Below, piece after piece: positions 94-63,742 of a stretch of DNA of 64,000 nt. Location: NCBI GenBank assembly GCA_017631315.1, contig JAGBTN010000015.1, forward strand, positions 219,936-283,935. Direction: 5' to 3'. The translations under genes and the position numbers were made by a program. This stretch comes from Bacteroidaceae bacterium (lineage in GTDB: Bacteria > Bacteroidota > Bacteroidia > Bacteroidales > Bacteroidaceae). The stretch's first letter is position 1. Every line of letters begins with the position of its first letter. Under the pieces are notes generated by a model that did no database searches, was not told where the DNA came from, and saw only the letters and a list, made by a program, of their open reading frames with translations.

Positions 94-181
94 GCACTGC
101 CTTGTTGCCCAAATAGGTTAACCATTATAGCCAACAAGCACTGCCTAATTGACCGATTAGGCAGTGCTTGTCTGACGAATA
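94..181. repeat. 22-nt-period array, locus 1 (family R1, variant cores)
   Basis: Four 8-bp cores start at 94, 116, 138 and 160, exactly 22 nt apart: GCACTGCC, GGTTAACC, GCACTGCC and GGCAGTGC. The last is the reverse complement of the first and third. The array lies downstream of pyrH (minus strand). I see no gene in positions 1-93 and cannot say what they belong to. Confidence 0.75.
134..171 (-). terminator. Perfect 16-bp hairpin downstream of pyrH
   Basis: Positions 134-149 and 156-171 are perfect reverse complements separated by a 6-nt loop. It is placed correctly to end the birA-pyrH transcript, but there is no proper T-tract after the stem on the minus strand (only TTGT), so it may instead be a structural part of the repeat array it sits in. 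Confidence 0.5.
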
Positions 182-4582: not shown

Positions 4583-4692
4583 CACTGGCCTTATGCTCCG
4601 GAATGGTTAACCTTTCCCCAAATAATGGTTAAGCATTCCGGCCATAATGGTTAACCCTTTTGGCAATAATGGTTAACCATTCCCGGCGACAA
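4583..4692. repeat. 22-nt-period array, locus 2 (family R1)
   Basis: GGTTAACC or one-base variants start at 4605, 4627, 4649 and 4671, exactly 22 nt apart. A degenerate unit with core CACTGGCC sits in register at 4583. The spacers run ATT..GGC..ATAAT. The array fills most of the gap between the GH2 gene and the sugar kinase. Confidence 0.9.
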
Positions 4693-11554: not shown

Positions 11555-12082
11555 GTGGACATCCTGTTGCTCGCACTCCTGGCCGTCGGCTTCGTGCTGG
11601 GGCTCATGTCAGGGGCCGTCAAGCAGATTGTCTCGCTTGCTGCCCTCGTGTTAGGCTTCGCCGTTGCCAGCCTCTACAGCCAAGAGCTGAGCAATGTGCT
11701 GGCCGATGTACTGCCAATGCCCGACGTCTGCCGCATAGTGGCCTTCGTGCTGCTGTGGGTCATCGTGATTCTCGTGGCACGCCTGACCGGAGCACTGCTC
11801 ACGTCGCTGCTCGACAAAGTGCTGGCCATAGGAATGCTCAACCGCCTGCTGGGCGGCATCCTCGGCACAGCAAAATTCGCACTCGTGCTAGGAACACTCA
11901 TCTGGCTCCTCTCCACAACCAACCTGATAAGCCAAGAGACAATGCAGACATCGCAACTCTGCCGTCCGCTCAAAGCAATGCCCGAATACACATATAACGT
12001 AATAAAAAAACACGCCCCACAAGCGGGCCAAGAAATAAGCATGTGCCTCACCCGAAAAAAAGGTATGCCTAATGAGCAATAA
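11555..12082 (+). CDS. CvpA family membrane protein
   Basis: A 175-aa integral membrane protein with about four hydrophobic segments; the opening ILLLALLAVGFVLGLMSG is typical of the CvpA/colicin V production family, of unclear function in most bacteria. The GTG start at 11555 follows the infB stop by one base, so it is coupled to infB. The last codons, giving the tail GMPNEQ, lie inside a degenerate unit of the 22-nt repeat array that follows, so the C-terminus is probably repeat-derived. Confidence 0.82.
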   Translation: MDILLLALLAVGFVLGLMSGAVKQIVSLAALVLGFAVASLYSQELSNVLADVLPMPDVCRIVAFVLLWVIVILVARLTGALLTSLLDKVLAIGMLNRLLGGILGTAKFALVLGTLIWLLSTTNLISQETMQTSQLCRPLKAMPEYTYNVIKKHAPQAGQEISMCLTRKKGMPNEQ

Positions 12083-12149
12083 TGCTTAACCATTCGGGCC
12101 AAAAAGGTTAACCATTATCCACATAATGCTTAACCCTTTTGGCAAGGCA
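12062..12149. repeat. 22-nt-period array, locus 3 (family R1), overlapping the end of cvpA
   Basis: GCTTAACC, GGTTAACC and GCTTAACC start at 12084, 12106 and 12128. One more unit is in register at 12062, with core GGTATGCC and the usual spacer ending GCAATAAT; it is translated as the end of the CvpA protein. Confidence 0.85.
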
Positions 12150-16861: not shown

Positions 16862-16905
16862 GGTTAAGCATTCTGCCAATAATGGTTAAGCATTATTGCA
16901 ATAAA
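16862..16905. repeat. 22-nt-period array, locus 4 (family R1)
   Basis: Two units with core GGTTAAGC start at 16862 and 16884. The array lies between the convergent sufS and GH97 genes and runs straight into a GC-rich hairpin. Confidence 0.85.
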
Positions 16906-16931
16906 GGCGAGGGGGAAAATCGTCCTCGCCC
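16906..16931 (-). terminator. GC-rich hairpin between sufS and the GH97 gene
   Basis: GGCGAGG (16906-16912) pairs with CCTCGCC (16924-16930). On the minus strand it lies just after the GH97 stop and is followed by TTTATT, so it most likely ends that transcript; it could also serve sufS. Confidence 0.5.
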
Positions 16932-18984: not shown

Positions 18985-19070
18985 AAACATCTACTGCCAA
19001 ACAGGCAATAATGGTTAACCATTCCGGGCATAATGGTTAACCTGTTTGGGGAACAAGGCAGTAGATGTTT
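18985..19070. repeat. 22-nt-period array, locus 5 (family R1), closed by an inverted repeat
   Basis: Cores start at 18991, 19013, 19035 and 19057: CTACTGCC, GGTTAACC, GGTTAACC and GGCAGTAG. The outer two are reverse complements, and the pairing extends to 14 bp (18985-18998 with 19057-19070) plus a further 7 bp inside (18999-19005 with 19041-19047), so the whole array could fold into one hairpin. It lies upstream of the GH97 gene and downstream of pnp. Confidence 0.85.
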
Positions 19071-19106
19071 CCACACACCGCCAGCCTCACACACCAGAAG
19101 ACACAA

Positions 19107-22746: not shown

Positions 22747-22752
22747 AAACTT

Positions 22753-22840
22753 CTGCAGAGAAGTCGGCCATTTACTGCAGAGAAGTCGGCCAACTTCACA
22801 CGTGTAGTTGCCCGGAAGGACGCGTCCGTTTCGTCAAATG
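22753..22840. repeat. 22-nt-period array, family R2, copy 1
   Basis: Cores start at 22753, 22775, 22797 and 22819, exactly 22 nt apart: CTGCAGAG, CTGCAGAG, CACACGTG and GACGCGTC. CTGCAG, ACACGTGT and GGACGCGTCC are palindromes. Spacers carry GAAGTC-GGCC and AACTTC arms. A further CTGCAG falls near the next position (22843). It directly follows the stop of the lipoprotein gene. Confidence 0.85.
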
Positions 22841-32842: not shown

Positions 32843-32926
32843 GGTTAACCATTATTGCCAGAAAGGTTAACCATTACGGGCAGAAAGGTTAACCATTGTC
32901 GCCATAATGCTTAACCCTTTTCGCAG
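32843..32926. repeat. 22-nt-period array, locus 6 (family R1)
   Basis: Three perfect GGTTAACC cores at 32843, 32865 and 32887 and GCTTAACC at 32909, exactly 22 nt apart. It lies between the corA promoter and the tRNA-Gln pair. Confidence 0.92.
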
Positions 32927-33001: not shown

Positions 33002-33072
33002 TTGGGCTACCCGGACTCGAACCAGGAAAGGCAGGACCAGAATCTGCAGTGTTACCATTACACCATAGCCCA
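33002..33072 (-). tRNA. tRNA-Gln(CTG), copy 2 in transcription order
   Basis: A full cloverleaf on the minus strand: acceptor TGGGCTA/TAGCCCA, D-arm GTGT/ACAC, anticodon loop TTCTGGT giving CTG, T-arm CCTGG-TTCGAGT-CCGGG. The closing pair of the anticodon stem is an A-C mismatch. CCA is not encoded. Identical to the copy at 33135. Confidence 0.93.
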
Positions 33073-33134: not shown

Positions 33135-33205
33135 TTGGGCTACCCGGACTCGAACCAGGAAAGGCAGGACCAGAATCTGCAGTGTTACCATTACACCATA
33201 GCCCA
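33135..33205 (-). tRNA. tRNA-Gln(CTG), copy 1 in transcription order
   Basis: Identical to the copy at 33002-33072, 62 nt upstream of it and following a -7 element at 33247-33239. The two are probably one transcript. Confidence 0.93.
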
Positions 33206-43976: not shown

Positions 43977-44063
43977 GGTGTAGCATTATGGCAATAATGG
44001 TTAAGCATTACGGGCGGAAAGGTTAACCATTATGGGCAAAAGGGTTAACCTTTATTTTTACTG
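43977..44063. repeat. 22-nt-period array, locus 7 (family R1)
   Basis: Cores at 43977 (GGTGTAGC, decayed), 43999 (GGTTAAGC), 44021 and 44043 (GGTTAACC). It lies between the divergent feoAB and Nudix genes; neither promoter is inside it. Confidence 0.88.
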
Positions 44064-48859: not shown

Positions 48860-49011
48860 CACTTTTTCTTGTATTCAACAATGTTTTCGCCTGGAAAATG
48901 CTGCATCGCTAATCTTTTGAAACTCCGTCTTGTTTTCGCAAGCGAAGGACATTCTACAACGCCCGACCTTACTTGCTGATTTTGAGTGCACGGAGTGAGG
49001 GAGCAAAACTT

Positions 49012-49099
49012 CTGCAGAGAAGTTGGCGAAGTTCTGCAGAGAAGTTGGGCTACTACACACGTGAACTTTGACAAGCGGACAGGAGAGGGTGTCCCGAAC
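49012..49099. repeat. 22-nt-period array, family R2, copy 3
   Basis: Cores at 49012, 49034, 49056 and 49078: CTGCAGAG, CTGCAGAG, CACACGTG and GACAGGAG. Core order is the same as in the copies at 22753 and 37987. Confidence 0.85.
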
Positions 49100-55878: not shown

Positions 55879-55914
55879 AACCGGAAACAACCCTTTAGGC
55901 TTTACACAAAAATA

Positions 55915-56000
55915 GGTTAACCTTTCTGCTAATAATGGTTAACCTTTACGACGATAATGGTTAAGCATTCTGCCAATAATGCTTAACCTTTATTTTTTGC
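55915..56000. repeat. 22-nt-period array, locus 8 (family R1)
   Basis: Cores at 55915, 55937, 55959 and 55981 (GGTTAACC, GGTTAACC, GGTTAAGC, GCTTAACC), exactly 22 nt apart. It fills the gap between the convergent CYTH and small-peptide genes and ends directly against the small-peptide stop codon at 56001. Confidence 0.92.
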
Positions 56001-63676: not shown

Positions 63677-63742
63677 CCTTAACCATTATCATCAAAAAGG
63701 TTAAGCATTATCGGCAGAAAGGTTAACCTTTTCCCGCAGAAG
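63677..63742. repeat. 22-nt-period array, locus 9 (family R1)
   Basis: Cores at 63677 (CCTTAACC), 63699 (GGTTAAGC) and 63721 (GGTTAACC). It lies between the rRNA operon terminator and the beta-helix operon promoter. Confidence 0.85.

What the first reader, a model, noticed from the sequence alone, without database searches (positions are those of the whole stretch)
4583..4692. Dispersed intergenic arrays with an exact 22-nt period and a GGTTAACC core (family R1, nine loci)
The sequence shows nine intergenic loci (94, 4583, 12062, 16862, 18985, 32843, 43977, 55915, 63677) with two to five units whose cores start exactly 22 nt apart. The core is usually the palindrome GGTTAACC (variants GCTTAACC, GGTTAAGC); the 14-nt spacer tends to ATTAT-GGCN-ATAAT, itself an inverted repeat. 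The period never slips although bases vary, so spacing appears to be under selection. 22 nt is about two helical turns, so all cores would face the same side of DNA. The loci sit between convergent, divergent and tandem genes alike. Candidate roles: a binding array for a dimeric nucleoid or chromosome-organising protein, RNA hairpin chains, or a decayed mobile element. I know of no described family like this.
Basis: seen in the sequence. Interest (0 to 1): 0.88.

Follow-up and report, generated by a model that had tools for sequence, protein, structure and literature searches.

The report
22-base-pair phased DNA repeat lattice
In this gut bacterium and related species, short mirror-image DNA motifs between genes sit exactly 22 base pairs (about two DNA turns) apart, and a faint trace of the same rhythm runs through the genes, which hints at an undescribed way of organising the chromosome, although no protein or function has been shown.

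Summary
GSTTAASC cores 22 nt apart occur 16 times in the window (0 in shuffles) and 278 times in the genome (reversed control 0). All 46 arrays in a 464-kb sample lie between called genes.

GGTTAACC is one family of several. Other families in this genome and in other species of the genus keep the same pitch. Intergenic DNA peaks at lag 22 even with GGTTAACC and TACATGTA arrays masked. Gene interiors show a faint comb at 44, 66 and 88, not at 33, 55 and 77; E. coli and other families of the order do not.

Between sister genomes 21 of 23 arrays are shared; cores are conserved, spacers drift. Spacer arms avoid complementarity and there is no G·U strand signature, so RNA hairpins are unlikely. A TACATGTA family has three cores in 59 of 60 arrays; its outer units covary as an inverted repeat and its centre never self-pairs.

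Best reading: DNA-level phased sites for an unknown dimeric chromosomal protein. BIME-like mobile hairpins are the main rival. No protein was identified.

The parts
94..167 (.). mixed 22-nt array: GCACTGCC / GGTTAACC / GCACTGCC / GGCAGTGC cores at 94, 116, 138, 160
4583..4692 (.). array at the given coordinates: CACTGGCC at 4583, then four GGTTAACC-type cores at 4605, 4627, 4649, 4671
   Evidence: orthologous array in G023 without indel
12062..12135 (.). GGTATGCC unit at 12062 plus three GGTTAACC-type cores (12084, 12106, 12128)
16862..16913 (.). two GGTTAAGC cores (16862, 16884) and GGCGAGGG in register at 16906, between convergent genes
18985..19071 (.). CTACTGCC / GGTTAACC / GGTTAACC / GGCAGTAG at 18991, 19013, 19035, 19057; the outer units form a 14-bp inverted repeat
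32843..32916 (.). four GGTTAACC-type cores (32843, 32865, 32887, 32909)
43977..44050 (.). GGTGTAGC unit at 43977 plus three GGTTAACC-type cores (43999, 44021, 44043), followed by a T-run
55909..55995 (.). complete four-core element (55915, 55937, 55959, 55981) with A-run before and T-run after
63677..63728 (.). three cores CCTTAACC / GGTTAAGC / GGTTAACC (63677, 63699, 63721)
22750..22795 (.). array of another family (CTGCAGAGAAGT, period 22), intergenic
49006..49050 (.). array of the CTGCAG family (AACTTCTGCAGAGAAGTTGGC, period 22), intergenic

Best explanation
The arrays are DNA-level, helically phased sites. SHOWN: dyadic cores (GSTTAASC flanked by AA and TT) repeat every 22 bp, most often four times, in an element of about 88 bp; the cores are conserved between sister species while spacers drift; the arrays lie between called genes; the flanking DNA keeps the same register for about five more units; a weak 22-bp comb runs through gene interiors. 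INFERRED: a dimeric chromosomal protein (one with loose specificity, or paralogues) binds the dyads cooperatively on one face of the DNA, since 22 bp is about two helical turns in a bacterial chromosome, and forms nucleoprotein filaments that are dense between transcription units and sparse within them, as a nucleoid scaffold or insulator. Modules such as GGTTAACC x4 or TACATGTA x3 would be strong nucleation points that spread in particular species.
For: Pitch exact while sequence varies: lag 22 in 14 of 40 stretches from 38 other genus members, against 0 to 2 of 40 at seven control lags; dyad centres at 11, 22, 33, 44 and 55 nt (27, 26, 16, 19, 9 in G000, against 0 to 3 at other distances from 10 to 55). 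Intergenic lag 22 is the top lag with GGTTAACC and TACATGTA arrays masked (z 15.6 in G000, 23.0 in G111; rank 1 of 68 lags). Register holds about five units outward from the arrays. Gene interiors: lags 44, 66 and 88 rank first among same-codon-phase lags in G000, G023 and G111 (z 2.9 to 6.3), 33, 55 and 77 do not; not due to a few genes in G000 and G111; absent in E. coli (82 kb) and other families of the order (115 kb). Cores constrained: 10/524 and 6/522 changes against 5% per lineage, p 2e-4 and 2e-6; free spacer positions 73/480. Core changes mostly keep the strong/weak class (6 of 10, 5 of 6). No strand preference: 12 arrays with, 13 against the gene strand, 1 undecided; G·T to A·C 0.97 against 0.98 expected. 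46 of 46 arrays intergenic. Core number: four in 27 of 46, three in 59 of 60 TACATGTA arrays. A published E. coli dinucleotide period of 11.05 bp (PMC7537859, passage) makes 22 bp two turns.
Against: No binding protein was identified or tested. Very different cores in one genome would need several specificities or a shape-reading protein. Covariation of outer units in the TACATGTA family (29 of 48 against 7.8 expected) is not predicted by simple protein binding. Copy numbers change abruptly between species, and identical TACATGTA copies exceed independence (40 pairs against 15.8, p 0.0014). Some arrays are direct repeats of non-palindromic units. In genes the lag-22 excess itself is weak (z 1.6 in G000, -0.6 in pooled other members) although 44 and 66 stand out, which I cannot explain. 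Some genus members show no lag-22 signal. Gene calls are home-made.
Confidence: 0.42

Rival explanations
1. Non-autonomous mobile palindromes (BIME/REPIN-like): 66-88 bp units spread by an unknown transposase that reads hairpins; the 22-nt pitch is a requirement of that enzyme, and older copies decay into the lattice between genes.
For: Species-specific expansions: TACATGTA pairs 173, 145, 109 and 43 in four genomes and 0 in 121 of 139; identical copies above independence; outer units covary as an inverted repeat and fold as a stem of about 30 bp, DNA MFE -39.4 kcal/mol, z -12 in one G111 array; discrete ends of the GGTTAACC element; mean pairwise identity of GGTTAACC arrays slightly above reshuffled spacers (27.44 against 26.83 of 42, sd of the null mean 0.16).
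Against: No Y1 transposase in G000 or G023 (genomes 86.6% and 72% complete); no target-site duplication in 27 four-core arrays; no empty site, 21 of 23 arrays shared and 2 without ortholog; no near-identical GGTTAACC copies (best 36 of 42 against 35.3 reshuffled); does not predict a comb inside genes.
Confidence: 0.27
2. By-product of mutation: slow 22-nt tandem duplication, slippage and template switching build and homogenise the lattice, with no function.
For: The one array-length change among 21 aligned pairs is a net loss of 22 nt; a few other 22-nt gaps; quasi-palindrome correction could produce the covariation of outer units.
Against: Spacers within an array are no more alike than between arrays (8.52 against 8.40 of 14, z 0.8) and less reverse-complementary (z -4.5); cores conserved; gives no reason for one pitch with unrelated sequences, nor for a comb in genes.
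Confidence: 0.13
3. RNA-level elements: bidirectional terminators or 3'-UTR hairpins.
For: Arrays between tandem genes lie nearer the upstream 3' end (21 of 26, p 0.0025; G111 19 of 23); A-run before and T-run after the four cores; single strands fold better than shuffles.
Against: Arms of the same core and of the same spacer pair less than expected (z -4.3 each); G·T to A·C mismatch ratios on the transcribed strand equal expectation in G000 and G111; arrays also occur between divergent genes (5 of 42).
Confidence: 0.1

Closest known systems
REP / BIME (bacterial interspersed mosaic elements) with RAYT transposases (PMC2817692, passages seen)
   Same: intergenic, more than 100 copies, palindromic units in regularly spaced mosaics, hybrid mosaics of several unit families
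   Different: one 22-nt pitch for many unit sequences; no GTAG-type head in the consensus; no Y1 transposase in G000 or G023; flanking DNA in the same register and a weak comb in genes
BrickBuilt minisatellite MITE of Porphyromonas gingivalis (PMC4596501, abstract, passages and part 1 of section 7 seen)
   Same: short tandem units in intergenic DNA of a related bacterial group
   Different: 23-nt unit AGAYCATARTATCCTCTCRTRTG with leader, tail and IS5-like ends; 19 copies; P. gingivalis and P. gulae
10-11 bp dinucleotide periodicity of bacterial chromosomes (PMC7537859, abstract start and passages seen)
   Same: period near the helical repeat (11.05 bp in E. coli), also seen in genes
   Different: here single letters repeat at 22, 44, 66 and 88 but not at 33, 55 and 77; very strong between genes; absent from my E. 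coli samples
Multi-site operators and iterons (recalled: ArgR boxes, MetJ boxes, 22-bp plasmid iterons)
   Same: repeated sites one or two helical turns apart, a few copies each
   Different: those sit at few loci with one known protein; here hundreds of sites and many core sequences

Membership tests
REP/BIME with RAYT | high-copy extragenic palindromic units in regular mosaics | tested here: met
   278 pairs genome-wide; 46 of 46 arrays intergenic
REP/BIME with RAYT | cognate Y1 (RAYT) transposase in the genome | tested here: not met
   PF01797: 0 matches in G000 and G023; other genus members: 53 of 139 over the cut-off; genomes incomplete
REP/BIME with RAYT | 5' GTAG-type head next to the palindrome | tested here: not met
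   column composition of 27 four-core arrays shows no such head
MITE | target-site duplication | tested here: not met
   best offset gives 3 of 27 four-mers
MITE | terminal inverted repeats | tested here: inconclusive
   A-run/T-run ends in GGTTAACC arrays; TACATGTA outer units covary
BrickBuilt | 23-nt unit with IS5-like terminal repeats | tested here: not met
   period 22 and another unit sequence
intrinsic terminator | RNA hairpin followed by U-run on the transcribed strand | tested here: inconclusive
   T-run present, but arms anti-complementary and no G·U signature
known RNA family | match to an Rfam model at gathering score | tested here: not met
   four matches in the window: three tRNAs and 5S rRNA, none in an array
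11-bp helical periodicity | signal at all multiples of about 11 bp, common to bacteria | tested here: not met
   33, 55, 77 and 99 not raised; E. coli and order controls flat at 22, 44 and 88
protein-binding operator array | a protein that binds the units | not testable with these tools
   needs experiment

The most novel reading that the evidence does not exclude
Chromosomes of this genus are laid out on a 22-bp lattice whose pitch, more than its sequence, is under selection: a bacterial analogue of phased chromatin. A genus-specific protein filament covers intergenic DNA densely and genes weakly; units evolve freely as long as dyads stay on one face, and families such as GGTTAACC x4 and TACATGTA x3 are its high-affinity seeds.
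Probability: 0.32. Interest if true: 0.96.

Novelty: categorically new. Interest (0 to 1): 0.86.

Why it matters
DNA between bacterial genes is usually thought to carry promoters, terminators and scattered repeats. A base-exact 22-bp register over many intergenic regions of one genus, with changing unit sequences and a faint continuation into genes, would point to an undescribed chromosome scaffold or to a repeat class whose mobilising enzyme fixes pitch but not sequence. Either can be tested with pull-downs, occupancy maps and population genomes.

Tried and rejected
RAYT/REP origin: no Y1 transposase in G000 or G023. Global hairpin for the GGTTAACC family: complementarity about the element centre is below expectation (836 against 858.9; single positions mixed). 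Phage origin: 0 stretches in viral contigs for the three-core GGTTAACC pattern. Insertion polymorphism: no clean empty site. Indel lengths: too few to be decisive; one badly aligned region gives most gaps of 10 or more. Orientation context: convergent and divergent shares do not differ significantly from other intergenic regions (p 0.27, 0.19). Complementarity beyond the TACATGTA arrays: positions 6-9 slightly raised, 6-40 not significant (716 against 708.1). Stop-codon cassette (TTAA every 22 nt gives stops in all frames): dropped because other families lack TTAA. Kissing loops by the TACATGTA loop: not excluded for that family. Tn7-like 22-bp sites: recalled only, not tested.

Results against the simple picture: 2 of 23 arrays of other families fall inside called genes. 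In one search lags 18, 21, 24 and 30 also give 8-10 repeats in other members, against 21 at lag 22. In one search, masked, other lags reach z 11.4 (lag 9, G000) and 15.8 (lag 7, G111); only GGTTAACC and TACATGTA arrays were masked there. With every lag-22 repeat of 12/14 masked as well, lag 22 stays first of 68 in both genomes, but 44, 66 and 88 fall to ranks 8, 6 and 14 in G000. In pooled other members lag 21 is second (z 4.1). G003, G006, G022 and G042 show no lag-22 signal. E. coli and order samples are smaller than mine.

Limits: unnamed or MAG genomes, mostly incomplete. Genes come from my own codon-score caller; E. coli uses its annotation. TTAA and the C/G frame of the GGTTAACC cores were imposed by the search; the flanking AA and TT were not. 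Dropped rows: one search used 42 of 46 arrays (4 near stretch ends) and found orthologs for 21 in the loci then held; one search placed 42 of 46; one search tested 31 of 32 G111 arrays (one four-unit array left out); one search kept 59 of the 60 TACATGTA arrays counted and looked only at three or more cores, one search found no two-core chain; one search used 48 distinct three-core arrays. G111 and the short stretches were chosen because they hold TACATGTA arrays. The core table is biased because arrays were found by their cores in G000; one search corrects this. G000 and G023 are close relatives, not independent.

I raised the best reading (0.40 to 0.42), the bold reading (0.25 to 0.32) and interest, lowered two rivals, and moved novelty from new variant to categorically new.

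Full report
WHAT IS THERE. The window lies in a 2.68-Mb draft genome (G000, 21 contigs, 86.6% complete). GSTTAASC-N14-GSTTAASC occurs 16 times in the window, against 0.00 in 100 shuffles, and 278 times in the genome, against 0 for the reversed pattern. In a 464-kb sample (the window plus 20 stretches) I found 46 arrays: 27 with four cores, 12 with three, 5 with two, 2 with five. All 46 lie between genes by my own gene caller.

ANATOMY OF THE GGTTAACC FAMILY. The search imposed the core [GC][GC]TTAA[GC][GC]. Around it, in 27 four-core arrays, AA and TT one base away on either side are nearly invariant. An A-run at -6 to -1 and a T-run at 74 to 80 bound an element of about 88 bp, four times 22. 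Spacers are diverse (103 distinct of 118). Within an array they are not more alike than between arrays (8.52 against 8.40 of 14, z 0.8) and they are less reverse-complementary (7.57 against 8.33, z -4.5). Arms across one core pair at 194 positions against 226.3 expected, across one spacer at 346 against 385.6 (z -4.3 each). So extended local palindromes are avoided.

EVOLUTION. A sister genome (G023) aligns at about 90-96% over most of its longest blocks; divergence is 6.3% in called genes and 10.0% between them. In one syntenic block 21 of 23 arrays of G000 have an array at the same site and two have no ortholog. In reverse 22 of 25 are shared, two have no ortholog and one is absent; there G000 carries a different 22-nt array (CTTCTGCAGAGAAGTTCACGAT, three units). 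Among the 21 arrays aligned the only length change is a net loss of 22 nt, aligned as two gaps. Counting only changes in the lineage not used to find the arrays, 10 of 524 and 6 of 522 canonical core positions changed, against about 5% expected (p 2e-4, 2e-6); free spacer positions differ at 73 of 480. Core changes mostly keep the strong/weak class (6 of 10, 5 of 6).

NOT ONE FAMILY BUT A LATTICE. Searching for any 22-nt repetition gives, in G000, families built on CTGCAG, CACGTG, AACGTGTT, GGCACGCC, CTACTGCC and TACATGTA cores. 57 of 159 intergenic regions of at least 80 nt carry a lag-22 repeat at 12 of 14 matches, against 0 to 2 at each of 17 other lags. GGTTAACC pairs occur in 7 of 101 genomes searched, G000 included. 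Yet of 40 stretches from 38 other genus members 14 carry a lag-22 repeat at 13 of 14, against 0 to 2 at lags 19, 20, 23, 25, 26, 28 and 29; multiples of three and lag 21 also give some (8 to 10 repeats at 18, 21, 24 and 30, against 21 at 22). The units there are unrelated words, many palindromic. Dyad centres recur at exactly 11, 22, 33, 44 and 55 nt. With GGTTAACC and TACATGTA arrays masked, lag 22 stays the top lag between genes (z 15.6 in G000, next 11.4; z 23.0 in G111, next 15.8). With every lag-22 repeat of 12/14 masked too, lag 22 is still first of 68 in both; 44, 66 and 88 stay first in G111 but not in G000. Pooled over other members z is 5.6 at 22 (4.1 at 21), and 0.2 for other families of the order (33 kb); some members show nothing. 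E. coli: z 0.0 (36 annotated regions, 6.7 kb) and -0.9 (34 kb, my caller). Outward from the arrays the register stays at 22 for about five units, with a weak consensus in G111.

INSIDE GENES. Lags 44, 66 and 88 rank first in G000 (z 6.3, 5.5, 2.9), G023 (4.6, 5.9, 3.3) and G111 (5.1, 4.5, 3.4); lag 22 is clear only in G111 (3.6); 33, 55, 77 and 99 are not raised. The excess is small, 0.3 to 0.8 percentage points of identity at 44-88. In G000 and G111 it holds in both halves of genes ranked by coding score and without the 12 strongest genes. Pooled other members show 44 (z 4.3) and weakly 66 (2.5), not 22 (-0.6). E. coli (82 kb) and other families of the order (115 kb) show none of it. So recognisable arrays lie between genes, but the rhythm is not confined there.

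THE TACATGTA SISTER FAMILY. Units TTGM-NNN-TACATGTA-NNN-KCAA occur in 18 of 139 genomes of the genus, up to 173 pairs, and in 0 of the 392 other genomes searched in the order. In the loci held, 59 arrays have three cores, one has four and none has two. In 48 distinct arrays the variable triplets of unit 1 and unit 3 are complementary in 29 (inner) and 23 (outer) cases, against 7.8 and 10.2 expected, with several pair types; the triplets around the central core are complementary in 0 of 48, against 6.2 (p 0.0007). As single-stranded DNA a G111 array folds into one stem of about 30 bp with a mismatch just below the loop. The family is thus selected, or corrected, as a long inverted repeat with an imperfect centre. 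In G111 the 31 arrays that could be placed are all intergenic, one more is at an edge; between tandem genes 19 of 23 lie nearer the upstream 3' end.

DNA OR RNA. If the dyads acted in RNA, G·U pairs should be tolerated on the transcribed strand. Among mismatches in dyads between tandem genes G·T to A·C is 197:204 in G000 (expected ratio 0.98), 308:339 in G111 (expected 0.87), 96:126 in G023 and 421:398 in other members. Array orientation is independent of gene strand (12, 13, 1 undecided). I place the function at the DNA level, with the caveat that the test is for dyads in general.

MECHANISM. The most economical reading is a phased set of dimer sites: exact spacing near two helical turns, palindromic cores under constraint, free spacers, defined core number, no strand preference, and a faint continuation into genes. 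Protein, cooperativity and purpose are inference. Covariation in the TACATGTA family and abrupt species-specific copy numbers speak for a mobile or hairpin-forming origin of the strong modules, so both may hold: dispersal like a BIME, retention as scaffold.

COMPARISON WITH KNOWN KINDS. REP/BIME mosaics share the general plan but are tied to RAYT transposases and a GTAG-type head, missing here. BrickBuilt has a 23-nt unit. The published helical-phase periodicity of bacterial chromosomes is a dinucleotide signal near 11 bp that includes genes; here only even multiples of 11 rise. A REP survey shows one passage on Bacteroidota, a species table, with no occurrence of Prevotella or of 22 bp (PMC12306157, term search). 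Ten searches of the open-access library listed no such arrays or period; most subscription papers and preprints are not covered.

Noticed in passing
window 33002-33072 and 33135-33205 (- strand): Two tRNA genes with identical Rfam scores, 133 nt apart, next to the array at 32843; possibly a duplication.
   Followed up: no
L121 16414, L188 5230, L188 11679 (G034): Near-identical elements with three TCATGA cores at 22 nt and TTGCAGCATCATGA-type ends at three loci: a TACATGTA-like family that looks recently dispersed.
   Followed up: partly
L119, L121 (G030, G034): Arrays of 7-nt repeats such as GAATGAA and AATTGAC in some genus members, giving lag peaks at 7, 14 and 21.
   Followed up: no
intergenic region at G000:C15 about 122521, ortholog in G023:C31: G023 carries about 1.17 kb more than G000 in this intergenic region; content not examined.
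   Followed up: no
flanks of TACATGTA arrays, L193-L212: Units of other families (GGCGTGCC, GGCATAGT, ATGCTGCT) often sit at exactly -22 and +22 of the three-core array, so arrays are mosaics.
   Followed up: partly
interiors of called genes in G000, G023, G111: Weak excess of identical letters at lags 44, 66 and 88, with lag 22 weaker than 44 and 66 in all three; unexplained.
   Followed up: partly
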